NCBI GenBank assembly: GCA_015272215.1
Contig: JACYMD010000056.1
Location: 1 to 32,161, forward strand
Length of the DNA stretch: 32,161 bases
Direction of reading: 5' to 3'
From: Rivularia sp. T60_A2020_040
GTDB taxonomy: Bacteria > Cyanobacteriota > Cyanobacteriia > Cyanobacteriales > Nostocaceae
The first letter of the stretch is position 1. Each line of letters opens with the position of its first letter. Both the position numbers and the translations under genes were made by a program. The notes under the pieces were generated by a model. That model ran no database searches. It was not told the origin of the DNA and saw only the letters and a list, made by a program, of their open reading frames with translations. Shown piece by piece: positions 4,070 through 32,161 of the stretch.

Positions 4070-4133
4070 AGAAGTCGGGTTTTGATGACTGCTTTGTGGT
4101 ATTACGGATAGAATATGTAAAAATCCGACTTCT
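4070..4133. repeat. Dispersed inverted repeat (AGAAGTCGGGTTTT family), copy 1
   Basis: AGAAGTCGGGTTTT at the left and AAAAATCCGACTTCT at the right form imperfect inverted arms around about 35 AT-rich bases. A second copy with the same arms is at 13526-13589. It probably folds as a long hairpin; no coding capacity is seen. Confidence 0.6.
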
Positions 4134-4399
4134 GTGATTATCCTGGAATTCACGCTACAATTAATTAATTTTATTTATGGCGATTGGGTAAAAATAGTCA
4201 TAAATGAACAAAAAATAGTTAAACTTTTGTACGTTAATATTATTAAACCCAAAACCTTGATGTTGAGTTAAACGCACATAAACGAAAACAGGTATTGAAT
4301 ACAGCCGACTAATAGATAAATTTTGATAATAAAGAATTCAAAAATAATTAGACCTATATATTATCAAAAAAACTAACCTAGAATCATCAATTATTTATA
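4134..4399. other. AT-rich spacer before the CPA2-UspA gene
   Basis: Nothing gene-like is seen. This is presumably the promoter and leader of the antiporter at 4400. I could not pick out a convincing -10/-35 pair or regulator site. Confidence 0.35.
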
Positions 4400-18928: not shown

Positions 18929-19987
18929 ATGCCAGACACTTTAACAAAACTGACTTATCAAACCTTTCAGCAGGGTAAAAGCATTTTTGGTTTAGCTCAC
19001 AAAACCCTAAGTACGCAGCTAATGAAAGCTTTATCTCCAGTAGAGAAGAAAGTAACACCGATTCCAACGGAGTTATTGCTGAAATTACGGGAGCGTTTCA
19101 ATAATTTATTAGAAGTTGACTGGGAAGATGCGGAAAAAGGTGTATATCCCAAAAGTCTGCTTTTTGATAATCCTTGGGAGGACTTTTTTGTTTACTATCC
19201 ACAACTATGGATGGATTTACCCCAAATTTGGCACAGAGCTAAGTCCGAGAAATATAAAGAATTTTCTGAAAATATAGATACGACATATTATCCCCAATAT
19301 TATGTGCAGAATTTCCATCATCAAACTGATGGTTATTTGAGCGAATTATCTGCTAATCTGTACGATCTACAGGTAGAAATTCTGTTTAATGGTGCTGCTG
19401 ATGCAATGCGACGCAGAATTTTGGCTCCATTAAAAGATGGGTTAAAAGTATTTGCTGATGTACCACCACCTCAACAACGTATTTTAGATGTAGCTTGCGG
19501 TACCGGGCGCACGTTGAAGATGATACGAGCAGCTTTACCCCAAACGTCGCTGTTTGGTACGGATTTGTCACCAACCTATTTACGGAAAGCGAATCAACTA
19601 CTATCGGAAATTCCCGGAGAATTACCGCAACTGTTACAAGCTAATGCTGAAGAGTTGCCTTATTTAGAGAACTACTTCCATGCTGTAACTTGTGTATTTC
19701 TGTTCCATGAATTACCAGCAGTCATACGTCAACGAATAATTAATGAAGCTTTCCGAGTCACAAAACCGGGTGGAACCTTTATTATTTGTGATTCAGTTCA
19801 GTTGAGTGATTCACCAGAAGTTGAACCTGCAATGCACAATTTCTATGAAACTTTCCATGAACCTTATTATCGAAATTACATGACAGATAATTTAGTGGAA
19901 CGTTTGGAAAAAGCTGGTTTTGAAAACGTTGAAATCCAGGTTCATCACATGAGTAAATATTTGATTGCTCGTAAACCCTTACTATAG
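18929..19987 (+). CDS. Class I SAM-dependent methyltransferase
   Basis: The protein has 352 residues. About the first 180 form a helical N-terminal region without a family name that I recognise (it includes WEDFFVYYPQLWMDLPQIWH). The rest is a Rossmann methyltransferase domain: motif I RILDVACGTGRTLKMI, then FGTDLSPTYLRKANQL, ANAEELPYLENYFHAVTCVF and the post-motif VTKPGGTFIICD. The mid part resembles UbiE/MenG-type enzymes, but the long N-terminus is different. A quinone or lipid substrate is possible but unproven. The start ATG at 18929 follows CCT without a strong ribosome site. The gene stands alone, and a TAGAGACG hairpin follows 29 bases after the stop. Confidence 0.85.
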   Translation: MPDTLTKLTYQTFQQGKSIFGLAHKTLSTQLMKALSPVEKKVTPIPTELLLKLRERFNNLLEVDWEDAEKGVYPKSLLFDNPWEDFFVYYPQLWMDLPQIWHRAKSEKYKEFSENIDTTYYPQYYVQNFHHQTDGYLSELSANLYDLQVEILFNGAADAMRRRILAPLKDGLKVFADVPPPQQRILDVACGTGRTLKMIRAALPQTSLFGTDLSPTYLRKANQLLSEIPGELPQLLQANAEELPYLENYFHAVTCVFLFHELPAVIRQRIINEAFRVTKPGGTFIICDSVQLSDSPEVEPAMHNFYETFHEPYYRNYMTDNLVERLEKAGFENVEIQVHHMSKYLIARKPLL

Positions 19988-20748
19988 GTTTTTGTTGATT
20001 AATCAATAATCCATGTAGAGACGTAGCATTGCTACGTCTTTATAAGTTTTAAGTGTAGTGAAAAAGCCTTTTTTTATTAAATAAAAGCAAAAACTAGAGA
20101 CTAATGTTGCCTCTAGCTTTAAATGTAAAAACACGATACATAATATACAGATGAGCCGATTAAAACAAACTTACAACCGAGTAAAATAACTGAGTAATCT
20201 TGATTTTCCGCTGGAGAGCTTAAATAAAGTTACTTGTTAATTATGGTTATTTGACTTATATAGAGAAACTCAAAAAATCTAACCTCCCGACAGCAGATAT
20301 TATCTGCTCAATTAATCAGAAAGCAGTTGCAGAAAATCTAAGCAACATAAATTCTCGTTGGTTTATCCTCCATAAGCATATTTAGATTAGATATTCTGCA
20401 AAGCGATTGCACAAATCATACTCTAAAAAATATGAAGACAAATTGAGCATAAAACAATCAGTGGTAGAAGTGCGGGAGGAAAATTTTTCTTTGAGAAGCG
20501 GATGATGCTATAGACAGTCGATATAGGTATTTGATACTTGAGGTTTGACTGGCTATTTATACAGACAGACGGAAATAAAATAATAACGAACAATTATCTA
20601 ACAACGTCGTGTTGCAAAAATTATATCTGCACGAAGTGCAAAAGGTAAATGGTGGTTTTTAACACCCTAAAAGCGAGACTTGAATGTACTTGAGATAACA
20701 CGACTAACTGGTTCTATGCGTTGCATTCTTAGTAGAGATAAAGCAGAA
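19988..20748. other. Gene-poor spacer with a hairpin after the methyltransferase gene
   Basis: A hairpin at 20016-20042 (AGACGTAGC / GCTACGTCT, then T-rich) may terminate the methyltransferase transcript. It is also a member of the dispersed TAGAGACG family. A second dyad, CTAGAG-CTCTAG, is at about 20093-20114. I find no frame with coding character in the remaining roughly 600 bases, which form the region downstream of patX. Confidence 0.4.
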
Positions 20749-20961
20749 TTAAGCACGAATGGAATATTCTACAAACTCTCTGCGCCCACTACCTCTATGA
20801 GGTGCTTTCGGATTGTTTGAATTAGTTCTACTTAATAGTAATTCTTGTTCTCCGGAGTTAGAAAACATTTGATTTACTAAAGTATCTTCAATTCCTTGGA
20901 AGGTAACAGCTAAGGAGCCGAATACAAAACTTGTAACTAAAAGTGAAATGGCTGTACGCAT
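20749..20961 (-). CDS. patX: PatX-like RGSGR-peptide precursor (heterocyst pattern regulator)
   Basis: The 70-residue product has a hydrophobic N-terminus fit for export (MRTAISLLVTSFVFGSLAVT). A polar middle follows, and near the C-terminus is the motif HRGSGRRE (about residues 55-62). RGSGR is the same pentapeptide as the active part of PatS, the diffusible inhibitor of HetR. Small exported proteins with this (H)RG(S/T)GR motif are PatX, described as an ancient companion of HetR in filamentous cyanobacteria. The processed peptide would bind HetR in neighbouring cells and limit heterocyst formation. The upstream TCCGGA box at 21019-21024 suggests HetR-dependent expression in differentiating cells. 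No hetR is in the window. The identification rests on the motif, size and signal peptide. Confidence 0.85.
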   Translation of the reverse strand: MRTAISLLVTSFVFGSLAVTFQGIEDTLVNQMFSNSGEQELLLSRTNSNNPKAPHRGSGRREFVEYSIRA

Positions 20962-21018
20962 AGTAGATGTCTATTTTTGAACTATCCACTTCACTAGTAC
21001 TTAGTTTGAAATACTGCA

Positions 21019-21024
21019 TCCGGA
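21019..21024 (-). promoter_or_regulatory. DIF1-like box (TCCGGA) upstream of patX
   Basis: TCCGGA lies 58-63 bases before the patX ATG. In Anabaena the DIF1 motif TCCGGA is found near -35 of promoters induced in developing heterocysts in a HetR-dependent way. A weak -10 (TAAGTA or TACTAG, 15 or 19 bases downstream) would give a leader of roughly 30 bases. The motif is only six bases, so position and context carry the argument. Confidence 0.5.
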
Positions 21025-21062
21025 TAATTTACTGAATAGTATTTTTTTTTACTCATATTTTT

Positions 21063-21590
21063 TTAGCAATCTTCATGAGTGAGATGTTCTACTAATAACC
21101 AGTTACCAGCATGATATATGTGACCCCCTATAGTTATATTTTCTTTATTTGACAAGGATTGTAGGGCTAAATTTATATTGGAGTTTAAAGTTACAAGCTG
21201 GTAAATATATCCTTTGAGTATAATTAGAATCGTAATCTTAAACCTGTAATCTTGCTGATGTATACGCTGAAAAATCCCTTGATAACAGTGACTATTGCGT
21301 AGCTGTACTGTATTATTGCCACCGTATGAGTACTGATGATAAAATGTATTTTGATAATTACCACTAGCAGGATAACTATCTAAATTGTCTAAATAATACA
21401 GTTGCTTGATTAATCAATCTGGATGATTTGGTAGTAAATTGAACAACTTAACGATTGCTGCTGGTGCTTGTAGATTATTTAAGTTTGTTACTTCATATCT
21501 TGCACCATAGAAACCTATCGTTAAAATAATTACTAATTGTTTGACTTTATTTTTACCTGCCTGGGACTGCAAGTCCCAGTCTGATAACAT
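21063..21590 (-). pseudogene. Unrecognised ORF broken by one in-frame TGA
   Basis: From an ATG at 21588-21590 the frame runs 58 codons to a TGA (21414-21416) and then 116 further sense codons, with no Met, to a TAA at 21063-21065. The two halves join naturally if TGA was TGG (NHPD-W-LIKQLYYLD). The first residues (MLSDWDLQSQ) are translated from a palindromic repeat, so the true 5' end was probably lost or overwritten. Next is a hydrophobic KVKQLVIILTIGFYGARYEV. The C-terminal part contains GGHIYHAGNWLLVEHLTHED. I do not recognise the family. The length of the two linked open frames in AT-rich DNA argues for a former gene. Confidence 0.5.
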
Positions 21591-21610
21591 AAGTCCATTA
21601 AAATGGACTA
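21559..21610. repeat. Two-hairpin REP-like palindrome
   Basis: CTGGGACT-GCA-AGTCCCAG (21561-21579) is followed 12 bases later by AGTCCATT-AA-AATGGACT (21592-21609). Two adjacent perfect hairpins of this kind form a compact REP/BIME-like unit. It overlaps the 5' end of the broken minus-strand ORF. Confidence 0.7.
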
Positions 21611-21654
21611 AAATATTACAGCTTTAAGTTAGTTATATTTTTATTTATATTTTT

Positions 21655-21767
21655 GGCGTTGCTGAATCCGGGTATGAATTTAGATATAGAGACGCGATAC
21701 TATGAGCGTCTCTACAAGTGTTGCGGTTTTCCAATCAACCCGTTTCATATATCCAATCAGCAACGCC
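21655..21767. mobile_element. 113-bp MITE with terminal inverted repeats and 8-bp target duplication
   Basis: The element begins GGCGTTGCTGA and ends TCAGCAACGCC, perfect 11-base inverted ends. It is flanked on both sides by ATATTTTT (21647-21654 and 21768-21775). An internal hairpin AGAGACGC / GCGTCTCT lies in its middle. It has no coding capacity and must move with a transposase encoded elsewhere. An 8-base duplication is compatible with IS1, IS256 or ISAs1-type enzymes, and I cannot choose among them. A partial relative is at 16897-16950. Confidence 0.8.
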
Positions 21768-21915
21768 ATATTTTTGATGATTTAGCTAATTATACGGCTC
21801 TGTGCAAGATATAAGTTACCCCAAAATAATACTGATAATAAAAAGCATCGTAATTATCCCTCTCATCAGAAAACGGTTATATGAAAACAAACGATGAATA
21901 TTAACAAATAAAACA

Positions 21916-22161
21916 CTACCAAAACCGACACTTTTTTTGTACTTCCAAAAATAATACGCAGCCTAATAAAGATAAAATAAAAGTTAATCCGACAATAACA
22001 GTCAATAAAATAATTCGACGTAGTTTTTGGTTTTCTTGTTCGCGCTTCTGTCGTTTTTCATCTTCGCGTTTCTGTCGTTTTTCATCTTCGCGTTTTTGTT
22101 CTTCTCGATATTTTTGACTTTCTTTGATAAACTTAAGAGGGTGCGTGACCCGAAACCAGGA
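21916..22161 (-). pseudogene. Remnant encoding a charged coiled coil and one membrane helix
   Basis: The complement of this stretch is open for 81 codons and has no start. It encodes SLKFIKE-like residues, then a K/R/E-rich tandem repeat (KREDEKRQ units, 21-base DNA repeat), LRRIILLTVIVGLTFILSLL as a membrane helix and a short tail ending CRFW. This resembles the middle of large cyanobacterial signalling proteins (for example those with NACHT, TIR or WD40 parts), where a charged coil precedes a single helix. Upstream sequence (from 22162) breaks the frame, so only a fragment survives. The low-complexity frame on the opposite strand (22027-22233) is its shadow. Confidence 0.5.
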
Positions 22162-22164
22162 TTA

Positions 22165-22592
22165 AAAACCAAAAAAGTAGAGGAGCATCTAGCATCCGAT
22201 CTTCCCCATCAAAATATAGGTTCTCTTAATTGAACTAATCCAATAAATTGAGCGCACGTTCAAGAAGTTGAACGGCTTAAGAGTTCCCTTTCCTGAGATT
22301 TACTAGTATTCCAGTCCGAGATTCCTTTGAAATTTGCTCCAGTCGGATAATAAGTCTTTTGGTCTAAAAGTTTATTTTCAGCCGTTTTGAGTACGTAAAT
22401 TAAACTTAGTTAGATGTATATAAAAAACATGACTATACTGAAAAGTATCGTTATACTATGCTTGTATTGTGTTGTAACCCTACTAGCTAAACTATTGCTG
22501 CTAGTAAGAGTTTTACTTTTTTTATCAAAAGTTGAATTTGATAAGTAATTTATTACAACAATATTACTACGTAAAAACTCTGTTGGAGAACT
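22165..22592. other. Spacer with promoter region of the arginine-catabolism genes
   Basis: There is no gene here. The last 100 bases contain a dyad at 22522-22544 (separate entry) and GTAAGAGTTTTAC (about 22504), which has GTA-N7-TAC spacing. That is one base short of the NtcA consensus, so I do not call an NtcA site. Confidence 0.35.
22522..22544. promoter_or_regulatory. Dyad upstream of the REC-arginine deiminase gene, candidate operator
   Basis: TTATCAAA and TTTGATAA are perfect eight-base arms separated by seven bases. They end 48 bases before the ATG at 22593. The position near a promoter and start codon suits a repressor or activator site. The cognate protein is unknown. Confidence 0.4.
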
Positions 22593-24227
22593 ATGAAATT
22601 ATTCAGACGTGTTCTTGTAGTTGAAGATGATGTGAAGTTTTGGAAATCACGTATTCCAAGACTACTTCCAGATACGGACTGGCAGATTCAATTTGTCAGC
22701 ACGGTTGATAAGGCAAAGCAAACATTCCAAGATGACTGTAATTTTGATTTGCTCATTGTAGACTATCAGCTTAATTCGGGAACAGGGCAAGAGTTCCTAG
22801 AATTTGTCAGGAAGATTGATGTAAACATCCCGATATTAATATTTTCAGATGAACCAAGTAACAAGACTTTTGATATCAGAGATGTAGAAACTTATAAGAC
22901 GCTTCCTTTTATTGATAAAAATAATTGTCTTGCTAATCCGGAAAAGGCTGCTGCAATAATTAAAGCAGAATATGAAAAATATATGGCTGTAATGTGTACT
23001 CCGCAAATCCAGAGTGAGTATGGACAGTTGCGGACGGTTTTAGTACACACACCATTTGAAGAAATGGAGCAAATTGAGCCAAATGACCCTTGGTATTTAA
23101 TAGACTCTCGTCCTGCTCTACATCTAGCTCAGGAACAGCACATTGGTTTTATTAAAGCAATTAAAGAAAATAGCTTGCGTCCCATAGTTTTGGATATTGG
23201 GCTTTTGTTGTATGACGTGCTGAAGTCTCTCAAAGGTTGGGAACTGCAACAGGTAGTAGAGAATATCCTGTTCAGTCACGGATTTCAGATTTTAACAAAG
23301 CGCTGTGCTAAATACAACCTGGAATTAAGCCCCTTGTTACGAGAGAAAGTTGATGAAATTTGCAGTAATGACCCACAAACAATAACAAAAGTGCTGTTAT
23401 GCGGTTTGAATATAGCTGACTTACTTGGGGAAGATGCCGAGCATCCAATGCGAAAACAGCGAGATTGTCAAATTATTGCACCCGTGCCTAATTTGTATTT
23501 TATGCGCGACCCTGGTTTTGTTTTAGGTGAATCTTTTGTACTATCTAGAATGTATTGGAATGTACGGCGCCGGGAACCTTCAATTCTCCATACAGTGCTG
23601 AATTATCACCCATTTTTTAAAAATGCCAAATCCCAGGCTATCGACTGGAATTTAGATTCAGGGGAAGAGTTTTTTATAGAGGGTGGGGACGTAATGGCTA
23701 TAAGTCCGAATAATTATGCTATTGCCTTAAGTGAACGAACTAGCCGGCAAGCTGTCAGAAAGGTTGCTTTTGAACTGCTAAAAAGGGGAGCAGAGCGAAT
23801 TTTTCAACCAACAATTCCTGTTAAGCGAGCTTTTATCCACTTAGATACTGTCTGCTCTATTGTTGGTCCAGACTATGTTGTGGCTCATCCCGAAGCAGTA
23901 AAAGCCTATGCAAATACTCTCTGCTGGACTCATAAGACATTTGAATCCAATGATGAACCGGAATCTATAAATACGGATTTTATTCGCGTTCTCCAAAATC
24001 ATTTCAACAAAAAGATTATTGAAGTGACCGATCCTTCCGAGCAATTTGATGATGCGGTAAACGTTTTGATGATTAAACCTGATACAGCAGTTGCTTATGA
24101 TCGGAACCCAAAAGCAAACAAAGCTTTAAGAAAACATGGAATTCAGGTTATAGAGTTTTCTGGTTCTGATTTAGTAGTGGGTCGTGGTGGTGCCAGATGT
24201 ATGACCATGCCTATTCGCCGTGATTAA
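22593..24227 (+). CDS. Receiver domain-arginine deiminase fusion
   Basis: The 544-residue protein combines a response-regulator receiver (about 1-130) with an arginine deiminase (about 140-544), which hydrolyses arginine to citrulline and ammonia. The receiver looks competent: E11/D12/D13 acidic pocket, D57 phosphoacceptor (LLIVDYQL), S85 and K109. The deiminase has FMRDPGF (D306), FIEGGDVM (E363), HLDTV (H416) and GRGGARCM with the nucleophile C536, all positions expected for ArcA. Standard ArcA has about 410 residues and no receiver, so phosphorylation might switch catalysis. GGAG six bases before the ATG supports the start. It leads a plus-strand set with an ornithine cyclodeaminase-like gene starting 40 bases after its stop. 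No histidine kinase is nearby. Confidence 0.92.
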   Translation: MKLFRRVLVVEDDVKFWKSRIPRLLPDTDWQIQFVSTVDKAKQTFQDDCNFDLLIVDYQLNSGTGQEFLEFVRKIDVNIPILIFSDEPSNKTFDIRDVETYKTLPFIDKNNCLANPEKAAAIIKAEYEKYMAVMCTPQIQSEYGQLRTVLVHTPFEEMEQIEPNDPWYLIDSRPALHLAQEQHIGFIKAIKENSLRPIVLDIGLLLYDVLKSLKGWELQQVVENILFSHGFQILTKRCAKYNLELSPLLREKVDEICSNDPQTITKVLLCGLNIADLLGEDAEHPMRKQRDCQIIAPVPNLYFMRDPGFVLGESFVLSRMYWNVRRREPSILHTVLNYHPFFKNAKSQAIDWNLDSGEEFFIEGGDVMAISPNNYAIALSERTSRQAVRKVAFELLKRGAERIFQPTIPVKRAFIHLDTVCSIVGPDYVVAHPEAVKAYANTLCWTHKTFESNDEPESINTDFIRVLQNHFNKKIIEVTDPSEQFDDAVNVLMIKPDTAVAYDRNPKANKALRKHGIQVIEFSGSDLVVGRGGARCMTMPIRRD

Positions 24228-24267
24228 AAAATTTTTATTTAACGATTGTAAAAATAGGAAAAGCCAA

Positions 24268-25269
24268 ATGAGTGAACAACTCGATGCTCGTTTAAAACTA
24301 GTTACCGAAACAGGTATAGCACCAGAGAATGGTTTTTATGTAACCAGTATTTATCCTATTGAGGTGCGCGTTAACGGTCAGTGGCTATTGGTAAAAAATC
24401 AGCGTATGGATGCGACGATTGTAGTAATTAAAACAGCTACTAGTTTTGTGCCTGAATGTAAAATTCTACGGGATTTACAGATTGGAGAGTTGGTAGTTAT
24501 TGGTTCAAATGGTGTCCGAGAACTGCAAAAACACGCAACCCAGGAACACGAAGAATTCAGCTTTATGTCGGCGGATGTCTCCAGCGAGCGGCGTGTGGAA
24601 TTGGTTGTTAAACAACTAGCACAGAAACTTTCGCAAATTCGAGATGAGGATGGTAAAGTAGTTGTTGTAGCAGGCCCGGTGATTATTCATACAGGTGCTG
24701 GCGGATATTTAGCGTGGTTAATTCGCTCTGGCTATGTGCAGGCTTTACTAGGGGGTAATGCAATTGCTGTTCACGATATTGAACAGAACCTGTTAGGCAC
24801 ATCTTTAGGCGTTGATTTAGAAAAGGGAGTAGGGGTACAAGGTGGACATAGACATCACCTCCAAGCTATTAACCAAATTCGTCAATGTGGTAGCACCGCT
24901 CGTGCTGTGGAGCTAGGGATTCTCAAAAGTGGTGTTATGTACGAGTGCGTAACACAAGGCATTCCCTACTGTTTGGCAGGTTCGATTCGTGATGATGGGC
25001 CATTACCTGAAACCGAGATGGATTTAATTAAAGCCCAAACTGAATATGCTCGGTTGCTCCAGGGTGCAAGCATGGTTTTAATGCTGTCATCAATGTTGCA
25101 TTCGATTGCTGTAGGGAATATGACACCTGCTGGAGTTGAAATGATTTGTGTCGATATTAATCCATCTGTAGTCACAAAGTTAAGCGATCGCGGTTCCCTT
25201 GAATCTCTAGGTGTAGTTACTGATGTGGGCTTATTCCTTAGCCTGTTAGTGCGCTATTTAGACAAGTAA
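24268..25269 (+). CDS. COG1915/TIGR00300 protein, putative ornithine cyclodeaminase
   Basis: The frame opens at 24220, overlapping the deiminase. The ATG at 24268 (MSEQLDARLK, AGGA upstream) is the better start and gives 333 residues. The sequence matches the LOR/SDH-type domain, with AGPVIIHTGAGGYLAWLIRS, the GGNAIAVHDIEQNLLGTSLG segment and the hallmark GGHRHHLQAINQIR. This domain is the C-terminal half of cyanobacterial AgrE/ArgZ and occurs alone in archaea. In both cases it has been reported to convert ornithine to proline and ammonia with NAD as a cofactor. Here it stands alone behind an arginine deiminase, so proline formation from arginine-derived ornithine is likely. The NADP-dependent saccharopine dehydrogenase activity suggested by the old domain name is not supported by context. 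Confidence 0.85.
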   Translation: MSEQLDARLKLVTETGIAPENGFYVTSIYPIEVRVNGQWLLVKNQRMDATIVVIKTATSFVPECKILRDLQIGELVVIGSNGVRELQKHATQEHEEFSFMSADVSSERRVELVVKQLAQKLSQIRDEDGKVVVVAGPVIIHTGAGGYLAWLIRSGYVQALLGGNAIAVHDIEQNLLGTSLGVDLEKGVGVQGGHRHHLQAINQIRQCGSTARAVELGILKSGVMYECVTQGIPYCLAGSIRDDGPLPETEMDLIKAQTEYARLLQGASMVLMLSSMLHSIAVGNMTPAGVEMICVDINPSVVTKLSDRGSLESLGVVTDVGLFLSLLVRYLDK

Positions 25270-25282
25270 GAAGGAGATTACA

Positions 25283-25462
25283 ATGATTGAACCAGTTCTA
25301 ACCCCCGGACAAAAAAGATATCAAGAATTGTTAGCCAAGACTGCCGAAATCCATCGTGCCAATCTCAAAAAATTGCTAGAACATCGTTTGTTTAAAGCAA
25401 AAGCTGAAGGAAATCAAAATTTGATTTACCAGCTAGAAGAAGAATTTAATTCTTTAAAATAA
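25283..25462 (+). CDS. Small helical protein of the arginine cluster (59 aa)
   Basis: A strong ribosome site (AAGGAG) lies seven bases before the ATG at 25283, and the gene starts 13 bases after the ornithine cyclodeaminase stop. The 59 residues begin MIEPVLTPGQKRYQELLAKT and continue as a charged amphipathic helix, ending LEEEFNSLK. There are no cysteines, and no membrane segment or signal is present. I do not recognise a family. Its spacing, clear ribosome site and position inside the operon make it a real gene. A regulatory or scaffold subunit for a neighbouring enzyme is a guess. Confidence 0.75.
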   Translation: MIEPVLTPGQKRYQELLAKTAEIHRANLKKLLEHRLFKAKAEGNQNLIYQLEEEFNSLK

Positions 25463-25503
25463 CTTATACCATTAACTACAGTATCTATTCAATATATAAT
25501 TTT

Positions 25504-26517
25504 TTGGAAATAACTGTGGAATACCAAAAATCCTCTCATCCGCTACAGCAAATTAGTACTGGAGAAATTCTTTCTATCCATGCCTACACATTTACGGGTT
25601 CCACTTCTGGAGCAACTATTTATCTTCAAGCAAACTTGCATGGTCCAGAAATACTAGGAACAGCAATTTTGGGAAAATTAATTACTCGTCTTGAACAAGC
25701 GAATGATATTCCAGGAAAAGTTATCATCGTGCCCTGTGCTAATCCAATTGGCGTAAATGCTGTTGGATATAATGCTCTCGTAGGAAGATGGAATTTACAT
25801 AATGGAACTAATTGGAATCGAATTTTTACAAATCATCTAGCCTGGAAAAATTTGGAGGAACAGAAAAACTATTATCAGTCAAAATTGACGCAATCAAACC
25901 TATCTATTGAAAAAAAGTTAGGAGCTACATTAAAACTATTAAGTTGGGAAGCTACTCATGTCATTGATATTCATACAGCTGGTTCTCAAAGCGTACCTCA
26001 TCTGTTTACATTTGAAGACAGTAGTCAAATATTTTCATACTTGGGGTCTAAAGTCCATTTGATTCTTACCAAAGAGTATGCTAGTGGAGCTTTTGATGAA
26101 TCTCATGTACTTCCATTTATTGATACATTACCCAAAGATATAATACCCAAGGTTTGTACATGGGAAGTGCATAATCACAGTGAGATTGATAACTCAGTGG
26201 TATTAGAAAGATTTCAACAATTATGGAATTGCTTAAGTTATATTTGGGGCAATGAAAAAAAGCTAGAGATGCATGAACCCTCTATGTTTCTCGCTAACAA
26301 TGCTACTCATCTTGTTGCTCCAGTAGCTGGCTATTACTCATGGCAGAAGCAAATTGGTACGAATATTAAAATTGATGAAGTCTATGCAACTGTATACCAA
26401 CCTTGGCACAACCAAACTTTGTCGATAAAAGCTGAACGTGAATTTATCTTACTTGGTAAATATGGGATTGATGCTATTGCTGAGGGTGAACAAATTGGCT
26501 GGATTGTCTATCTTTAA
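25504..26517 (+). CDS. AstE/AspA-family zinc hydrolase, candidate cyanophycin-dipeptide hydrolase
   Basis: This is a 337-residue member of the succinylglutamate desuccinylase/aspartoacylase group (M14-like). Zinc ligands are visible as NLHGPE (H46, E49) and DIHTAG (H157). NPIGVN (80-85), the NWNR basic motif (103-106) and TWEVHNH with E221 as likely catalytic base complete the site. The start is TTG at 25504; a GTG at 25516 is a possible alternative, and no ATG is available nearby. Family members remove acyl groups from amino acids. Pseudomonas AotO/CphZ, which as I recall belongs to this group, cleaves beta-Asp-Arg released from cyanophycin. Sitting with arginine-degrading enzymes, that substrate is attractive here, but no residue proves it. 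Confidence 0.85.
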   Translation: MEITVEYQKSSHPLQQISTGEILSIHAYTFTGSTSGATIYLQANLHGPEILGTAILGKLITRLEQANDIPGKVIIVPCANPIGVNAVGYNALVGRWNLHNGTNWNRIFTNHLAWKNLEEQKNYYQSKLTQSNLSIEKKLGATLKLLSWEATHVIDIHTAGSQSVPHLFTFEDSSQIFSYLGSKVHLILTKEYASGAFDESHVLPFIDTLPKDIIPKVCTWEVHNHSEIDNSVVLERFQQLWNCLSYIWGNEKKLEMHEPSMFLANNATHLVAPVAGYYSWQKQIGTNIKIDEVYATVYQPWHNQTLSIKAEREFILLGKYGIDAIAEGEQIGWIVYL

Positions 26518-26604
26518 TAAGCAAATATTCAAGTTTATCAGTTTGCCCGTTGTCAATGAAACTTATTTATTCCCAATAACATCTTTGCATAGGCGCGAAA
26601 TTAA

Positions 26605-26630
26605 ACACTGAGTCCCAAAGGGACTCGTGT
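26605..26630. terminator. Hairpin between convergent genes, likely two-way terminator
   Basis: GAGTCCC-AAA-GGGACTC forms a perfect stem, extended by ACAC/GTGT with one bulged base. It lies between the stops of the zinc hydrolase (26517) and the CtlX-like gene (26647). T-runs are short, so termination strength is uncertain. Confidence 0.6.
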
Positions 26631-26646
26631 TATTCCTATTTGTCTC

Positions 26647-27540
26647 TTAAAATAATTCAGCTATCATGCACCTAACTCCTCCTCCCCCATATGTTTCTAT
26701 ATTTGGAATAGGAACATGAACAAGATTGCCAAACGTAGATAACAAATCTTTTTGTTGATGATTCAAAGCGTTAAAAGACCTTGTTGACAAAGCTACCAAT
26801 GGAATATTATTTTTTGTATTAAGCTGAATTATATTTCCACAAAAATCGAATACTTGTTCTAAGGTTATTGTTATGAGAGTTTTTCCAGAGCTAGATATAT
26901 TATCTCTTACTATCTCCCATTCTTTTATATTTGTAATTGCATCTTTGCATACTAAAGCAAATTTGTCACCGATCGACATGATAACATTAGTATGGTAAAT
27001 TGGATTTCCAGCTTTATCAGAAGCACTAAATATAACTGGCTTATAATTTAACAAACTAGCTAACTTCAAAATTAAGTCTTTATTAGACCTTTTTGAAAGA
27101 GATGAATAGACTATCTTATTTATTCTATCAAAAATTAAGCTACCTGTTCCTTCAAGAAAAATATCTCTTATTTCATAGTGAGATAAATCTATTAATAATG
27201 GATATTGTAGCCTCAAAAAATTAATTATATCCTCTCTTCTCTCTTTCCTTCTGATAGAAGACATTAATGGATATATAATTAAAGTTTCATCGAAATGAGT
27301 TGAAAACCAATTATTAGGAAAGATAGAATCAGGAGAATTATTTTCACTTAAATCTTTAAAATCTAATATATCTATACCTAACTTGATTAAAGTTTGCTTT
27401 AATAATTTATACTCATTAATTACTAATTCATTTAGCTTTTTATCATTCGCTTGACTTTGAAATTTATTGTCGATTAAAGTTTCTGGATTTGAGAAGAAAT
27501 TACTAGGTTCAATCATTAAGACTTTATTTGTTATCTGCAT
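26647..27540 (-). CDS. CtlX-like citrulline hydrolase / amidinotransferase-fold protein
   Basis: The 297-residue protein belongs to the guanidino-group modifying fold. SIFPNNWFSTH (72-82) has the substrate loop, FLEGTGSLIFDR (128-139) the acidic residue E130, YHTNVIMSIG (182-191) the catalytic histidine H183, and GGGGVRCMIAE (285-295) the nucleophile C291. This combination is that of CtlX, described as hydrolysing citrulline to ornithine, ammonia and carbon dioxide. The PNNW and final RCM-A-E motifs separate it from arginine deiminase and DDAH. The gene is visibly more AT-rich than its neighbours and convergent to the operon it complements, hinting at separate acquisition. ATG at 27540 was chosen; a second Met at residue 9 is possible. 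Confidence 0.8.
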   Translation of the reverse strand: MQITNKVLMIEPSNFFSNPETLIDNKFQSQANDKKLNELVINEYKLLKQTLIKLGIDILDFKDLSENNSPDSIFPNNWFSTHFDETLIIYPLMSSIRRKERREDIINFLRLQYPLLIDLSHYEIRDIFLEGTGSLIFDRINKIVYSSLSKRSNKDLILKLASLLNYKPVIFSASDKAGNPIYHTNVIMSIGDKFALVCKDAITNIKEWEIVRDNISSSGKTLITITLEQVFDFCGNIIQLNTKNNIPLVALSTRSFNALNHQQKDLLSTFGNLVHVPIPNIETYGGGGVRCMIAELF

Positions 27541-27803
27541 AGTCTGATTTTTTCACACTAATTTAAGTACATAATAACCTAGGCTAATTAAGTAGAAATT
27601 ATGATTTTTTTAAAAATTATTTTTTTTTATAAAATATTAAAAGATGAGCTATATGCCACTATTAATGCTTATTATTTATGATTGAGTAATTAATCTGATA
27701 GCAGTTTATTTAAATAATTTTTATATGTTCCTTTTCACCATGAAAACATCGCCCAAAGAATATTAAATCTAAAACAATATTTTGTATTGTCGTGAAATTA
27801 ATT

Positions 27804-27923
27804 TAAGTAAGTGGGTCAAATTAAATATAAAACCTCACCCTCAATCCCTCTCCTAATATACGGAGAGGGAGCAGTACGGCAGGGTGAGGTTTTATCTTAT
27901 ATTTAATTACGCCTACCTACTTA
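27804..27923. mobile_element. 120-bp palindromic MITE-like element
   Basis: Its left arm TAAGTAAGTGGG, then AATTAAATATAA, then AACCTCACCCT pairs with the same blocks in reverse on the right (TAAGTAGGTAGG on the complement). The centre is CCCTCTCC-GGAGAGGG. Nearly the whole element can fold into one long hairpin. It has no coding capacity. The target duplication is unclear; a TA or TTAA target is possible. Confidence 0.65.
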
Positions 27924-28027
27924 ATGGGTAGTTATATCTATTCCTAAGAAAATCTATCGGTAGTAGTTTCAGAAGCTGTAACTCCATCTGAAGATACTTA
28001 CAAAATACTTATTTATCCAGTTAAAAG

Positions 28028-28117
28028 TTAAGAGGACGGGAGTTGAAAGTTAGGAGTTAGAAGTTAAGAATTATAACCTTTGACCTTTAACCTTTGACCT
28101 CTAACCTATTCCCTACT
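28028..28117. repeat. Short tandem repeats before the PiT gene
   Basis: The tract has GAGTTGAAAGTTAGGAGTTA and then CCTTTGACCTTTAACCTTTG. It is an STRR that ends about ten bases before the ATG, so it may contain the PiT leader. Confidence 0.75.
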
Positions 28118-28126
28118 TTTAACTAA

Positions 28127-29440
28127 ATGACTATTCCGATTTTTATAGTTATCTTATTAGCTTTCTATCTCGCTTGGAACCTGGGAGCAAATGACGTTGC
28201 TAATGCAATGGGTACTTCGGTAGGTTCTAAAGCCGTTACTTTAAAACAGGCTTTGATAATTGCAGGAATATTAGAATTTAGCGGCGCTGTTTTATTCGGA
28301 AATAAAGTATCCCAAACTTTAGTAACCGAAGTCAGTAATCCGGCTTTATTTGCGGATGTACCCCAAGTTTTTGCGACTGGAATGTTTTCAGTATTATTAG
28401 CTAGTGCTTTGTGGTTGCAAATTGCCACATCGCGGGGTTTACCAGTTTCATCTTCTCATGCGGTTGTTGGTGCGATCGCTGGTTTTTGCATTACTGCTGC
28501 TGGATTTGGGGCAATTGAATGGTCATCAATTGGAATAATTACTCTGGGATGGATTATTGCACCAGTTATCAGCGGTTGTATTGCTGCTTTGTTTTACAGT
28601 CAAATTAAACGCTGGATTTTAGACCAACCGCAGCAATTGCGACAGTTAAATGAGTGGATTCCCTGGTTAAGTGCATTGTTGTTGGGAGTATTCGGAGTCA
28701 TCGTGCTACCAAAAGCAACTCAACCGCTAGCAACTTTTTTGATTGAGCAAGTTGGTTTGAAATTACCGTCTCATGACATTCCACTTTTTATCGGTACAAC
28801 CGCAGCGGTGGGATTGACAGTTTATAGTTGGCGAGAGTTGGATTTAGGGACAAGGAGACAAGGTGATGGGGAGATGGGGGGAGAAACTTTTTTAAAATCC
28901 TCAATCCAAAATCTAAAATCTAAAATCCAAAATCCAGTTGAGCGTATATTCGCTAAGTTCCAATTGCTGAGTGCTTGTTTTGTTGCGTTTGCTCACGGTT
29001 CTAATGATGTGGGAAATGCGATTGCTCCTTTGGCTGCCATAACTTATGTTAATCGCACCGGAAAAGTCCCCATTTACGATTTAGATATTCCCCTATGGAT
29101 TTTGGTAATTGGTGGTACTGGGATTGTGTTTGGTTTGGCGGTTTGGGGTAAAAAAGTGATTGCGACTATCGGTGAAAGTATTATTACTTTGCAACCAAGC
29201 AGCGGGTTTTGTGCGGAACTCGCAACCGCTACAACGGTAATTATTGCATCTCGTTTGGGTTTACCCGTTTCCACTTCTCACGCCCTTGTGGGTGGTGTAG
29301 TGGGTATTGGCATAATTAAAGATATTAAATCAGTGCAATTCAAAACTTTACAAGGAATTGCAGCTGCTTGGATTGTTACGCTTCCGGTGAGTGCAGTTTT
29401 AAGCGCAGTGATTTTTAGTTTGGTTCGTCTTGTTTGGTAG
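28127..29440 (+). CDS. pit: PiT-family inorganic phosphate permease
   Basis: This low-affinity phosphate transporter has 437 residues and two inverted halves of membrane helices. The two family signatures are GANDVANAMGTSVGS (about 21-35) and AHGSNDVGNAIAPLAA (about 286-301). Each half also has a paired GLPVSSSHAVVGA / GLPVSTSHALVGG motif. The cytoplasmic loop between the halves (about residues 240-270) is encoded by tandem-repeat DNA (28845-28936) that stays in frame; see the separate entry. The rest of the protein looks intact. The ATG at 28127 follows a repeat tract. The stop lies only five bases from the stop of the convergent repeat protein, so the two transcripts probably overlap. No PhoU-like partner is present. 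Confidence 0.92.
   Translation: MTIPIFIVILLAFYLAWNLGANDVANAMGTSVGSKAVTLKQALIIAGILEFSGAVLFGNKVSQTLVTEVSNPALFADVPQVFATGMFSVLLASALWLQIATSRGLPVSSSHAVVGAIAGFCITAAGFGAIEWSSIGIITLGWIIAPVISGCIAALFYSQIKRWILDQPQQLRQLNEWIPWLSALLLGVFGVIVLPKATQPLATFLIEQVGLKLPSHDIPLFIGTTAAVGLTVYSWRELDLGTRRQGDGEMGGETFLKSSIQNLKSKIQNPVERIFAKFQLLSACFVAFAHGSNDVGNAIAPLAAITYVNRTGKVPIYDLDIPLWILVIGGTGIVFGLAVWGKKVIATIGESIITLQPSSGFCAELATATTVIIASRLGLPVSTSHALVGGVVGIGIIKDIKSVQFKTLQGIAAAWIVTLPVSAVLSAVIFSLVRLVW
28845..28936 (+). repeat. Intergenic-type tandem repeat inserted in frame within pit
   Basis: GGGACAAGGAGACAAGGTGA, GGGGAGATGGGG and then AAAATC/CAAAATC units occupy the central-loop codons. The same sequence types occur in spacers at 6533-6590 (complement), 10849-10880 and 16837-16856. 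They are translated here as GTRRQGDGEMGGE followed by KSSIQNLKSKIQNP. Confidence 0.8.
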
Positions 29441-29445
29441 TGTAT

Positions 29446-29943
29446 TTACAAATTACTTTTACCAACCGGACGTTGACCATCTATATTCAACATATGGTCA
29501 ATTTCTAAATCGCTTGGATCAACCGGACGTTGACCATCTTCATTTATCATTTGCGAATCTTCAAAATTGCTCTTGGCTATTGGGCGTTCACCATCTACAT
29601 TAAAGGTTTCTTCTACTTCAAAACTACTTTTAGCAACAGGGCGTACACCATCTTCGTTAAAAGTATGGTCAATTTCTAAATCGCTTGGATCTACAGGGCG
29701 ATCGTTGTGTATATTATCAACTATCTCACCTTGATTGCGATCGCTCTTAGCAATCGGACGCTGATTTTCGACATTAAAGGTTTCTTTGATCTCAAAATTG
29801 CTCTTAGCAACAGGGCGTATACCATCTTCATTAAAAGTATGGTCAATTTCTAAATCGTTTGAGTTAACCATAGGTTCGTTGTCTTTGCTAATTTTTTGAG
29901 AATCTGTTTTTGATTTCTTGCTTTTTTTGGTTTTTTTATTCAT
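29446..29943 (-). CDS. Small protein made of seven 19-20 residue repeats
   Basis: The 165 residues start with a lysine/serine-rich lead (MNKKTKKSKKSKTDSQKISK). Seven tandem units follow with consensus DLEI-x-x-TFN-x-DG-x-RPVAKS, for example DLEIDHTFNEDGVRPVAKS and SFEVEETFNVDGERPIAKS. One unit (DRNQGEIVDNIHNDRPVDPS) is degenerate. Units 1-2 and 4-5 match pairwise, so a two-unit block was duplicated. No cysteine, signal peptide or membrane helix is seen. Overall it is acidic in the repeats and basic at the N-terminus. I do not recognise the family; repeats ending in RP(I/V)-x-S suggest a short beta or ligand-binding motif. It is convergent with pit at five bases. Confidence 0.8.
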   Translation of the reverse strand: MNKKTKKSKKSKTDSQKISKDNEPMVNSNDLEIDHTFNEDGIRPVAKSNFEIKETFNVENQRPIAKSDRNQGEIVDNIHNDRPVDPSDLEIDHTFNEDGVRPVAKSSFEVEETFNVDGERPIAKSNFEDSQMINEDGQRPVDPSDLEIDHMLNIDGQRPVGKSNL

Positions 29944-30067: not shown

Positions 30068-30096
30068 CCTCTAGCCGGCTTCGCCTGAGCTAGAGG
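30068..30096 (-). repeat. Right-end hairpin of the IS200/IS605 element
   Basis: CCTCTAGC and GCTAGAGG pair around a 13-base loop and overlap the tnpB stop codon. In this family such right-end hairpins are the transposase recognition site and also the end region of the guide (omega) RNA. Confidence 0.75.
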
Positions 30097-30733
30097 CTTC
30101 TAACTTCATCGGGGGGTGCATAAAGATCGGATTTCTCCCACCCTTACGGCTTACCTCCCCTCCATTAGCAGGAGTCCCAGTTCCTGAGACCCATAACTGT
30201 CTAATCCCTTCTGCTCTAATATTTTTGGCAGCGTTATCGTCACGATCATGATCAACACCACAATTAGGGCAGTTCCACTTTCTAACATCTAATGGCATTT
30301 CCGGCATTTGATATAAGCAGTTAGAACAAGTTTTAGAACTAGGAAACCACCGATCAATCTCTACTAATAACCCACCTTTTTCTTTGAGCTTATAGTCAAG
30401 AAAATTGATAAATGTTCCCCAGCTTACATCTGATATTGCTTTAGCTAATTTATGATTCCTCACCATACCCTTGACGTTTAGGTTTTCTACAATAACCACT
30501 TGATTATCATCTACTATCTTTCGAGATAATTTATGCAAGTAGTCTTGCCGGGCATTACTGATACGTGAGCATACTTTAGCTACTAGCTTTTTAGCTTTAT
30601 CTCTAGACTTACTTCCTTTTTGTTTACGAGCTAATTTAGCTTGTTTTCTAGCTAAATTCTTTTGGTGTTCAGCACAGTACTTGAGGTTAGGATATTTAGA
30701 AGTTTTCTCACCATTATAAGTGATAGCAAAATC
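30071..30733 (-). CDS. tnpB: TnpB RNA-guided nuclease, 3' exon of an intron-split gene
   Basis: The 220 codons begin DFAITYNGEKTSKYPN, which in TnpB comes straight after the GIDxG motif bearing the first RuvC aspartate; that part must lie in the 5' exon beyond the window. Present here are the lysine-rich helix (KNLARKQAKLARKQKGSKSR), RuvC-II VVIVENLNVKGM (catalytic glutamate), a zinc ribbon of two CxxC pairs (TCSNC, NCPNC) and RuvC-III HDRDDNAAKNI (catalytic aspartate). The frame extends upstream to 30919 only because the intron end happens to be open, so that part is not TnpB. After intron removal the protein might be functional. TnpB uses a guide RNA from the element's right end. Confidence 0.85.
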   Translation of the reverse strand, partial: DFAITYNGEKTSKYPNLKYCAEHQKNLARKQAKLARKQKGSKSRDKAKKLVAKVCSRISNARQDYLHKLSRKIVDDNQVVIVENLNVKGMVRNHKLAKAISDVSWGTFINFLDYKLKEKGGLLVEIDRWFPSSKTCSNCLYQMPEMPLDVRKWNCPNCGVDHDRDDNAAKNIRAEGIRQLWVSGTGTPANGGEVSRKGGRNPIFMHPPMKLEASSSGEAG

Positions 30734-30809
30734 ATTAAACTCAGTGGGGAAGTCACCTTCCCTCACTGGTCTCCAAAACGGTGCATGAAAGTTTCCCTTC
30801 ACACCGCTC
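30734..30809 (-). ncRNA. Group II intron domains V and VI (3' end of the outer intron)
   Basis: Domain V (30775-30809) starts GAGCGGTG, with the AGC catalytic triad. It has a lower stem closing with CACCGTTTT, a two-base TG bulge and an upper stem TGAAGG-GAAA-CTTTCA with a GNRA tetraloop. Domain VI follows: CAGTGAGGG and CCCCACTG form the stem, with an unpaired A on its 3' side (likely branch point). The intron ends GTTTAAT at 30734, after which tnpB sequence begins. The exact 3' splice position is inferred from the tnpB alignment. Confidence 0.85.
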
Positions 30810-30830
30810 CTCAGTGTACGACTATCACCA

Positions 30831-32117
30831 TTAACTTGTGACATCAGCCTTAGTTTGGTGTATTTGGTCATGGCAATGTAAGTGTAATAACAGAAGGTTA
30901 TTATCAGCATTATTGCCACCTTTGGACTTCATTGAAATATGATGTTTTTCAATTAAATCTTCAGGTTTAAAGCTTAATCCGCAATGAGCGCATTTACCCT
31001 TTTGCTTTTTGAGTAATCGGGCTTTTTGTGGGTCAATGGTTTGATAATTGTCCCCTATGCGTTTACTCCAATAAATTTCATCACCATCATATGGCGTTCT
31101 TATCCCATCAATTTTTATCCATTTAACGCTGGCTGGGAAGTCAGTGTGACAGAGTAATTCAAGAGGATTTGTACCACTTCTAGAAATAAATGACCATTGT
31201 CTACTTCCACCGAAGTATTTCTTGGCAATCCATTTCCTGTTTTTCTTCGGGTGACGACGTTTTGCCCATCTCCATAATCTTGACCACATGAGGTTTTTGA
31301 CTTTAGAGAAAGTTTCCTTAGTATGCCAAGGTGATTGATAATTACACCAACCTCTGATGATGGGATTTAGCTGTTTAATTAATGCTGCTGCATCTACAGC
31401 TTTCATCTTGTTGCACCATTGGTTTAGCTGTTCATAATGCACTTTGACTTTTATGAAGGAGGGTCTAATGATGGTTTTAAATCCTAATGGCTTCTTACTT
31501 GTAGTTTTTCCAGAGTGATGTTTTCCTACTTGGAATTGTTTGATTTCAAAACCAAGAAAATGGAAACCTGGTTCTTCATTTTCAAACTTTTCTAAGGTAT
31601 GACATAATCTGGTTTTACTAGGCTTTAATTCAAGTCCGATTTCTTTTAACCAATTTTCTACTAATTCCTTACATTTGATTACTGGTTCTAGTTCCTCGCA
31701 TAGGATGACAAAATCATCCGCATAACGAATTATTCTAGGAGATTGAAACATCTTCTTGTAATTTTTCCAAGATTCTGTCCAACGTCCTTTTTTATCGCTG
31801 GGGAAGTTGTTTTCTATGTGTTGTTCTAGTCCATGTAGAGCTATATTAGCCAATAAGGGTGAAATCGTCCCACCTTGAGGTACTCCTTCTGAGGTGTTGT
31901 TATAACCTTTTCTTTCTGCCCATTTACTAAAGTCAATGACTCCAGATTTGAGCCATGCTTTAATTTGTCGTGAGAATTTGGGAAAGGTATTCAATTTCTT
32001 AATTAGTGCTTCATGGTTGATGCAGTCAAAACATTTGCTAATATCGGCATCAAGCACATATTTCGGCTTTTTGTTAATATTTGCAAATATTGCTGCGATT
32101 GCATCGTGACATGAACG
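30831..32117 (-). CDS. Group II intron reverse transcriptase/maturase with HNH domain, 3' exon
   Basis: The 428 codons begin RSCHDAIAAIF, which in intron reverse transcriptases follows GFRPG in RT motif 2; the 5' half is missing beyond a second intron. Present are YVLDADISKCFD (RT-3), GVPQGGTISPLLANIALH (RT-4), the active site RYADDFVI (RT-5), HFLGFEI, the maturase X domain (about 31700-31300 region, with NPIIRGWCNYQS) and a C-terminal HNH nuclease (CAHCG, HHISMKSKGGNNADNNLLLLHLHCH). The encoded protein would splice and mobilise the outer intron. Frame continues to 32159, but those 14 residues (MESSGSCEGVTDFT) are translated intron RNA. It needs the inner intron removed to make a full protein. 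Confidence 0.85.
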   Translation of the reverse strand, partial: RSCHDAIAAIFANINKKPKYVLDADISKCFDCINHEALIKKLNTFPKFSRQIKAWLKSGVIDFSKWAERKGYNNTSEGVPQGGTISPLLANIALHGLEQHIENNFPSDKKGRWTESWKNYKKMFQSPRIIRYADDFVILCEELEPVIKCKELVENWLKEIGLELKPSKTRLCHTLEKFENEEPGFHFLGFEIKQFQVGKHHSGKTTSKKPLGFKTIIRPSFIKVKVHYEQLNQWCNKMKAVDAAALIKQLNPIIRGWCNYQSPWHTKETFSKVKNLMWSRLWRWAKRRHPKKNRKWIAKKYFGGSRQWSFISRSGTNPLELLCHTDFPASVKWIKIDGIRTPYDGDEIYWSKRIGDNYQTIDPQKARLLKKQKGKCAHCGLSFKPEDLIEKHHISMKSKGGNNADNNLLLLHLHCHDQIHQTKADVTS

Positions 32118-32161
32118 AGTAAAGTCAGTGACTCCCTCACAGGAGCCACTGCTCTCCAAAA
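32118..32161 (-). mobile_element. 3' tip of a second group II intron inside the RT gene (partial)
   Basis: On the minus strand the last 44 bases read TTTTGGAGAGCAGTG, then GTGAGGGAGTCACTGA and end CTTTACT. The outer intron's end reads TTTTGGAGACCAGTG, then GGTGACTTCCCCACTGA and GTTTAAT. The shared frame of conserved blocks and a CAGTG/CACTG stem identify domain VI of a related intron. It ends exactly before the CGT codon of RSCHDA, in phase 0 within the host RT gene. Domain V and everything upstream are outside the window. Confidence 0.7.

What the first reader, a model, noticed from the sequence alone, without database searches (positions are those of the whole stretch)
22593..27540. Possible cyanophycin-dipeptide to proline catabolic cluster in a heterocyst-type cyanobacterium
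Seen: REC-arginine deiminase, COG1915 protein, a 59-aa protein and an AstE/AspA hydrolase in one plus-strand run, with a convergent CtlX-like gene. Known: deiminase gives citrulline, CtlX gives ornithine, and COG1915/AgrE-C gives proline. The AotO/CphZ group, which I recall as AstE/AspA-type, cleaves beta-Asp-Arg, the nitrogen carrier moved from heterocysts to vegetative cells. Inference: the genes form one route beta-Asp-Arg -> Arg -> citrulline -> ornithine -> proline with three ammonia released, a split alternative to the fused AgrE. I do not know a description of this arrangement.
Basis: partly seen in the sequence, partly recalled or inferred. Interest (0 to 1): 0.85.

Follow-up and report, generated by a model that had tools for sequence, protein, structure and literature searches.

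The report
Arginine-breakdown operon carrying PirA brake
A cyanobacterium carries a gene cluster, found in no other genome examined, that looks built to break arginine down to proline and ammonia, with a signal-receiver-fused first enzyme and a small protein (PirA) known to brake arginine synthesis; the proposed link to the storage polymer cyanophycin is unproven.

Summary
The genes are real and correctly placed. A tight plus-strand run encodes a receiver-fused arginine deiminase (22593-24227), a standalone AgrE-type ornithine cyclodeaminase (24268-25269), a 59-aa protein and a divergent AstE/AspA-type hydrolase (25504-26517); a convergent gene encodes CtlX citrullinase (26647-27540). Best reading: a private arginine-to-proline operon (via citrulline and ornithine; 3 NH3 plus CO2) that also carries a brake on arginine resynthesis.

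The cyanophycin part is weak: the hydrolase keeps catalytic residues but does not group with structure 8ein, and the genome already has two cyanophycinases and an IaaA-type protein. It does not replace AgrE, which is also present. The cluster was found in no other genome searched; the receiver-deiminase occurs once more, alone, in Richelia sp. UBA3308; CtlX is in 1 of 195 genomes of the order, this one. New variant of a known kind, worth testing.

The parts
22593..24227 (+). REC-ADI: receiver domain (about residues 5-110) fused to arginine deiminase (about 139-544), 544 aa
   Evidence: Receiver residues D12/D13, D57, S85, K109 present; deiminase D306, E363, H416, D418, R531, C536 and N300, R325, R382 present. 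The D306 column is the one that reads A in chain 2aci and D in 1rxx; the other roles are recalled.
24268..25269 (+). Standalone COG1915/TIGR00300 ornithine cyclodeaminase (333 aa from ATG; listed from GTG 24220 as 349 aa), lacking the ArgZ domain and most of the LOR/SDH N-terminal region of AgrE
   Evidence: Keeps 163 of 188 columns invariant in 36 AgrE C-termini.
25283..25462 (+). [quoted passage not shown]
   Evidence: NF050139, 56.9 bits, cut-off 50; one of two matches in this genome, the only free-standing one; keeps 8 of 8 columns invariant in 27 other PirA proteins, 3 of 8 nearly invariant ones.
25504..26517 (+). Divergent AstE/AspA-type zinc hydrolase, 337 aa (TTG start at 25504; a GTG at 25516 is also possible); candidate amidohydrolase releasing arginine or a related amino acid
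   Evidence: H46, E49, R95, N105, R106, D155, H157, E221 invariant in a 30-row alignment.
26609..26627 (.). Terminator-like hairpin between the two convergent units
   Evidence: 8 pairs, 5 G-C; consensus match only: 6 such sites found in 22200-28130, 3.7 expected.
26647..27540 (-). CtlX citrulline hydrolase, 297 aa, convergent with the operon
   Evidence: FPNN (residue 74) and HTN (residue 183), the replacements that PMC9007349 gives for CtlX; Cys291 near the C-terminus.

Best explanation
A lineage-private arginine-catabolic island. The plus-strand run recADI-ocd-pirA-hydrolase is most likely one transcription unit; ctlX beside it supplies the missing step. Proposed route: arginine -> citrulline + NH3 (REC-ADI) -> ornithine + CO2 + NH3 (CtlX) -> proline + NH3 (standalone cyclodeaminase), the same net reaction as the fused AgrE but through free citrulline and ornithine. 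The receiver domain would let a histidine kinase switch the first, committing step. The hydrolase most likely releases arginine (or ornithine or citrulline) from a conjugate; beta-Asp-Arg is one candidate. Shown: gene identities, spacing, conserved residues, genomic distribution. Inferred: co-transcription, activities, substrate of the hydrolase, phosphorylation control, PirA-PII binding.
For: Families above curated cut-offs for the cyclodeaminase, CtlX and PirA and for the ADI and hydrolase domains. Catalytic and substrate residues of ADI kept; CtlX signature residues present. CtlX lies beside an ornithine cyclodeaminase in both plasmid neighbourhoods opened (2 of the 133 plasmid records with a match) and often so according to PMC9007349 (passages), an independent precedent for citrulline -> ornithine -> proline. 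PirA competes with NAGK for PII (PMC8092223 passages); the letter PMC8262935 (whole text) points to a possible futile cycle of arginine synthesis and catabolism and asks for work on regulators such as PirA when arginine becomes available. Control: in 0 of 30 PirA loci fetched from other genomes (the best-scoring ones, up to 1.5 kb held on each side) was a relative of REC-ADI, the cyclodeaminase/AgrE, the hydrolase or CtlX found.
Against: No activity, transcript or structure was available. The cluster was found in no other genome searched; REC-ADI stands alone in Richelia sp. UBA3308, where one search found AgrE but neither ctlX nor a second cyclodeaminase, so REC-ADI can exist without this route. 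AgrE is present here, so the route is redundant. PirA is divergent: 56.1 bits against about 69-89 for most genomes of its family (though three same-family genomes, G178, G184 and G272, give only 50-58), and it keeps only 3 of 8 nearly invariant residues. ADI scores far below the arcA equivalog cut-off (254.8 against 489.1). CtlX is on the other strand and lower in GC (27.5% against 33-43% for the operon genes), so it may have arrived separately; PMC9007349 itself calls its activity putative. No NtcA-type site above chance (7 found, 6.2 expected; the nearest upstream is 1.5 kb from the operon start).
Confidence: 0.6

Rival explanations
1. One reading: the hydrolase is a cyanophycin-dipeptide (beta-Asp-Arg) hydrolase of the AotO/CphZ kind and the cluster processes that dipeptide down to proline.
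For: Same superfamily; 8ein/8eip match at 5e-12 and 3e-11, and 8eip lacks the catalytic Glu that 8ein has and that aligns with E221. PMC10206079 reports, citing another study, that enzymes annotated 'succinylglutamate desuccinylase/aspartoacylase family' are beta-Asp-Arg/Lys hydrolases (passages); PMC12661447 names CphZ as the isoaspartyl dipeptidase (one passage). The genome has two cyanophycinases above cut-off; its IaaA-type protein passes Pfam but scores only 117.9 against 567 on NCBIfam's beta-aspartyl-peptidase model. An Enterobacter plasmid puts an AstE/AspA protein in a run with an ornithine cyclodeaminase family protein and a lysine/arginine/ornithine-binding protein.
Against: The window protein lies outside the 8ein clade (100/99) and is 66 of 291 identical to it, though its long branch makes the place unsure. 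No cyanophycin gene was seen among the window ORFs scanned. That 8ein is AotO/CphZ is recalled; the table names it only 'succinylglutamate desuccinylase'.
Confidence: 0.25
2. The hydrolase is an N-acyl amino acid deacylase (for example of N-acyl-arginine, -ornithine or -citrulline) or a scavenging peptidase, and the island feeds on external arginine conjugates or arginine.
For: In the tree the window protein sits outside both the 8ein clade and the cyanobacterial AstE-like plus 3fmc group, beside a haloarchaeal AstE/AspA protein with 5-oxoprolinase and aminotransferase neighbours; its only NCBIfam hit is the deacetylase DoeB, weakly (20.8 bits, cut-off 402.7).
Against: That pairing joins two long branches and may be false. 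No amino acid transporter was seen among the window ORFs scanned.
Confidence: 0.3
3. A decaying acquired island: the genes arrived by transfer, overlap with AgrE, and have no selected joint function.
For: Found in one genome only; an ORF-poor 2.6-kb stretch upstream holds 155 bp 94% identical to a plasmid stretch annotated as a mobilization protein; OrfB/TnpB and a group II intron reverse transcriptase lie downstream. REC-ADI (0.156) and the cyclodeaminase (0.217) have the lowest codon-usage likeness of the window's non-mobile genes listed (the yardstick was built from 12 window genes, so it favours those).
Against: All five frames are intact with catalytic residues kept, spacing is tight and PirA has a strong ribosome-binding site; PirA here is the genome's only free-standing match.
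Confidence: 0.12

Closest known systems
AgrE/ArgZ (arginine dihydrolase-ornithine cyclodeaminase)
   Same: Same net reaction proposed; the cyclodeaminase is 64-70% identical to the AgrE C-termini listed.
   Different: Three separate proteins instead of one; the first step is an ArcA-type deiminase with a receiver domain, not the AgrE dihydrolase domain; most of the LOR/SDH N-terminal region is missing; AgrE itself is kept elsewhere in the genome.
CtlX-ornithine cyclodeaminase citrulline-use clusters (PMC9007349; plasmids of Pseudoalteromonas and Klebsiella)
   Same: CtlX beside an ornithine cyclodeaminase.
   Different: The two neighbourhoods opened list no arginine deiminase and no PirA and carry an Lrp-type regulator (their gene tables are incomplete); here the cyclodeaminase is of the AgrE type and CtlX is convergent.
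PirA (Ssr0692; asr1328 in Anabaena)
   Same: Small protein of the same family with all 8 residues invariant in 27 others.
   Different: Sits inside an arginine-catabolic gene run; none of 30 other PirA loci examined does.
ArcA arginine deiminase
   Same: Whole ADI domain and catalytic residues.
   Different: N-terminal receiver domain; about 30% identity; below the arcA equivalog cut-off; no arcB/arcC among the window ORFs scanned.
Cyanophycin dipeptide hydrolases (AotO/CphZ)
   Same: AstE/AspA family and zinc/catalytic residues.
   Different: Outside the 8ein clade in the tree (place unsure); substrate unknown.

Membership tests
PirA (NF050139) | Profile score above curated cut-off of 50 bits | tested here: met
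   56.9 bits
PirA (NF050139) | Residues invariant across other PirA proteins | tested here: met
   8 of 8 columns invariant in 27 others kept; only 3 of 8 nearly invariant ones; the 27 include near-identical rows
PirA (NF050139) | ADP-dependent binding to PII, competition with NAGK | not testable with these tools
   Biochemistry needed
CtlX (NF046062) | Profile score above cut-off of 334 bits | tested here: met
   338 bits
CtlX (NF046062) | Asn in place of the two substrate-binding Asp (FPNN, HTN) | tested here: met
   FPNN at 74, HTN at 183; rule from PMC9007349
TIGR00300 ornithine cyclodeaminase | Profile score above cut-off of 410.8 bits | tested here: met
   474.4 bits, though profile positions 1-72 are not matched
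AgrE/ArgZ fused bifunctional enzyme | Dihydrolase and cyclodeaminase in one protein above 1025 bits | tested here: not met
   558.9 bits, C-terminal part only; the genome's other copy meets it with 1394.1 bits
ArcA arginine deiminase | arcA equivalog cut-off (489.1 bits) | tested here: not met
   254.8 bits
ArcA arginine deiminase | ADI domain and catalytic/substrate residues | tested here: met
   PF02274 212.9 bits; residues (roles partly recalled)
Two-component response regulator | Receiver domain with Asp pocket, phospho-acceptor Asp, Ser/Thr and Lys | tested here: met
   D12/D13, D57, S85, K109 (roles recalled); Pfam passes when the domain is scanned alone, narrowly fails in the whole protein
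AotO/CphZ cyanophycin dipeptide hydrolase | AstE/AspA catalytic domain and zinc/catalytic residues | tested here: met
AotO/CphZ cyanophycin dipeptide hydrolase | Grouping with the known enzymes in a tree | tested here: inconclusive
   Outside the six-row 8ein clade, 100/99, but the window row is a long branch, only one structural representative was used and its identity as AotO/CphZ is recalled
AotO/CphZ cyanophycin dipeptide hydrolase | Hydrolysis of beta-Asp-Arg | not testable with these tools

The most novel reading that the evidence does not exclude
A phosphorylation-gated arginine deiminase (receiver domain fused to ADI) that commits arginine to breakdown, in an operon that at the same time makes PirA to stop arginine synthesis: a one-operon switch between making and burning arginine in a cyanobacterium that stores nitrogen as cyanophycin.
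Probability: 0.4. Interest if true: 0.78.

Novelty: new variant of a known kind. Interest (0 to 1): 0.6.

Why it matters
The 2021 letter by Flores (PMC8262935, whole text) points out that arginine synthesis and breakdown could form a costly futile cycle in cyanobacteria and that regulators such as PirA should be studied when arginine becomes available. A gene run that puts PirA with arginine-degrading enzymes makes that question directly testable. A receiver domain on an arginine deiminase would be an unusual case of direct two-component control of a nitrogen-releasing enzyme; I saw no description of one in the held library (280 papers with at least 3 of the 4 terms, 12 listed, none about such a fusion by title and abstract start). 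It also warns against naming an AstE/AspA protein a cyanophycin-dipeptide hydrolase from context alone.

Tried and rejected
Rejected: that the cluster replaces AgrE (complete AgrE present). Rejected: that the 59-aa protein is unknown or a chance ORF. Set aside: that it belongs to the DUF4278-PirA-like proteins; that is a separate 145-aa protein elsewhere in the genome. Rejected: true AstE (no AstE model among the NCBIfam hits, no astABCD among the window ORFs scanned). Rejected: recent duplication of this genome's own AgrE as the source of the cyclodeaminase; the AgrE copies of this genome and six genus mates form one clade (7 rows, 100/100) that does not hold it, and it sits on a long branch whose place is unsure. 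Led nowhere: NtcA sites (7 found, 6.2 expected), Rfam (0 hits in 19900-28200), promoter scan (20 found, 22.7 expected), plasmid searches for close relatives, genome-contig scan with the hydrolase (27 candidates, no relative). Two scripts gave nothing usable (looked for files that were not there, superseded; one search printed nothing, superseded).

Limits: one search used only two short peptide patterns, so distant REC-ADI fusions could be missed. In one search lower matches are not listed, and several genomes show two matches that I did not resolve. The genus was scanned for PirA only with the joined query, not with the family model. Not every gene was searched in every genome sample.
Full report
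Observation. The five genes are present and intact at the stated coordinates. Family searches give arginine deiminase with an N-terminal receiver, the ArgZ-like C-terminal (cyclodeaminase) domains, an AstE/AspA catalytic domain and a DDAH/CtlX-type protein; the TIGR00300, CtlX and PirA models are passed. The four plus-strand genes are packed head to tail; CtlX is convergent, with a terminator-like hairpin between (a consensus match only).

REC-ADI. The deiminase part aligns end to end with solved arginine deiminases (best E 1.2e-41) and keeps the catalytic set in a five-row alignment. Chain 2aci reads A and 1rxx reads D at the column of D306, which ties that column to the active site; other residue roles are recalled. 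The score is well below the arcA equivalog cut-off (254.8 against 489.1), so this is a divergent deiminase. The receiver keeps D12/D13, D57, S85 and K109 and the four solved chains it matches at 0.001 are response regulators. It is rare: of 41 genomes (own included) 9 match, 2 of them over the full length (own and G003) and 7 essentially in the receiver part only. In a phylum sample 4 of 386 genomes pass 1e-20: the window's own and three deiminases of 29-32% identity in open frames of 432-464 aa, too short to hold a receiver as well. A scan of named genome contigs, with two short patterns only, found one relative, DESS01000295.1 of Richelia sp. UBA3308; contig length (89952) and position agree with G003, so the two are taken as the same. 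There the gene stands alone: no other cluster gene in the 20-kb stretch taken, with TetR, P450, amine oxidase and flavodoxin genes downstream.

Cyclodeaminase. It is 64-70% identical to the AgrE C-termini listed and 34% to the one plasmid-collection match, on an Acetoanaerobium replicon. It keeps 163 of 188 columns invariant in 36 AgrE sequences. It starts near AgrE residue 361, so it lacks the dihydrolase domain and most of the LOR/SDH N-terminal region that this genome's AgrE has; the solved relative 3c2q, 345 aa, aligns over the same stretch. In the order, 176 of 195 genomes match; every listed match other than the window's lies in an open frame of at least 538 aa, so the window copy is the only standalone one listed (lower matches are not listed, and genomes with two matches were not resolved). 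In the tree it sits on a long branch whose place is unsure, not inside the clade of this genus's AgrE copies.

PirA. NF050139 scores 56.9 bits (cut-off 50). In the phylum sample 116 of 386 genomes match and 103 pass the cut-off. This genome has two matches; the second is a 145-aa DUF4278 protein with a PirA-like C-terminus, so the window copy is the only free-standing one. Most genomes of its family have a copy scoring about 69-89 bits, but three score 50-58 and some have no match, so divergence or loss of PirA is not unique to this genome. Of 30 PirA loci fetched (the best-scoring), 27 gave an aligned protein; three with a weaker or no tblastn match were dropped, and several of the 27 are near-identical. 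All 8 invariant columns are kept in the window protein, and 3 of 8 nearly invariant ones. In none of the 30 loci was a relative of REC-ADI, the cyclodeaminase/AgrE, the hydrolase or CtlX found in the up to 1.5 kb held on each side.

CtlX. It carries FPNN and HTN, which PMC9007349 gives as the CtlX replacements of FTRD and HLD (passages). It is in 1 of 195 genomes of the order, the window's own, and 3 of 358 in a phylum sample, only the own one over the cut-off. The best plasmid relatives listed (12 of 133 records) are 39-40% identical; in both annotated neighbourhoods opened it lies beside an ornithine cyclodeaminase. PMC9007349 itself calls the activity putative.

Hydrolase. The zinc and catalytic residues are invariant in an alignment of 30, whose other rows are 24-28% identical to the window protein. 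Matches in 52 of 386 phylum genomes at 1e-10 and 8 of 8 genus genomes are, apart from the window's own, distant; the 37 copies fetched encode 371-393 aa, and this genome has one of those too. In a 24-row tree the window protein is outside the six-row 8ein clade (100/99) and outside the cyanobacterial plus 3fmc group, joined to a haloarchaeal protein by a long-branch pairing that may be false. PMC10206079 says, citing another study, that some enzymes so annotated are beta-Asp-Arg/Lys hydrolases (passages); a look-up of the paper I recalled for it failed. So the substrate is open.

Genome context. The genome has AgrE, two cyanophycinases above cut-off plus one weaker match, and one Asparaginase_2 protein, which scores 117.9 against 567 on NCBIfam's beta-aspartyl-peptidase model. 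Among the eight genomes of the genus, only the window's showed CtlX or a second cyclodeaminase (one genome, 84% complete, had no match at all). No other genome searched here was found to carry the cluster; not every gene was sought in every sample. REC-ADI and the cyclodeaminase show the lowest codon-usage likeness among the window's non-mobile genes, in keeping with acquisition.

Mechanism. From the families, ADI, CtlX and cyclodeaminase together give arginine -> proline + CO2 + 3 NH3, the same balance that PMC8262935 gives for AgrE (whole text). Unlike AgrE, the split route makes free citrulline and ornithine, both substrates of arginine synthesis. PMC8092223 (passages) reports that PirA competes with NAGK for PII and so lowers arginine synthesis. 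Placing pirA with the degrading enzymes would stop refilling of the pool. This is inference from gene content.

Literature. PMC2242806 (passages) reports larger, membrane-bound 'arginine deiminases' in cyanobacteria; from the size and strains these look like the AgrE family rather than the ArcA type (my inference). A search for PirA with cyclodeaminase, AgrE and operon terms (124 papers with at least 4 of 6 terms, 12 listed) showed no description of such an operon in titles and abstract starts; nor did (787 papers, 20 listed) or (280, 12 listed). The library holds open-licence papers only.

Noticed in passing
window 22174-22328: 155-bp stretch 94% identical to a region annotated 'similar to mobilization protein' on a 39.7-kb plasmid of Calothrix sp. 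PCC 7716, inside an ORF-poor 2.6-kb stretch upstream of the operon.
   Followed up: partly
window 21654-21768: Inverted repeat pair of 25 nt (76% complementary) around CGTTGCTGAAT, looking like an insertion-element remnant (I3).
   Followed up: no
window 30071-32159: OrfB/TnpB-type gene and a group II intron reverse transcriptase with HNH domain running to the contig end.
   Followed up: no
window 29446-29943: 165-aa protein of repeated RPVAKS/RPIAKS-type units with no Pfam match.
   Followed up: no
L152:2550-2987 (own genome, contig C139): 145-aa protein with a DUF4278 domain and a PirA-like C-terminal motif; three frames of similar length read from other genomes also carry the motif, two of them with a similar N-terminus. 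A possible larger PirA-like family.
   Followed up: partly
L156 (Enterobacter roggenkampii plasmid), 1936-6083: AstE/AspA-family protein in a run with an ornithine cyclodeaminase family protein, an aminotransferase and a lysine/arginine/ornithine-binding protein.
   Followed up: no
window 27803-27924: Nested inverted repeats downstream of the cluster (28 and 24 nt arms), before the PHO4-type transporter gene (I1 and I2).
   Followed up: no
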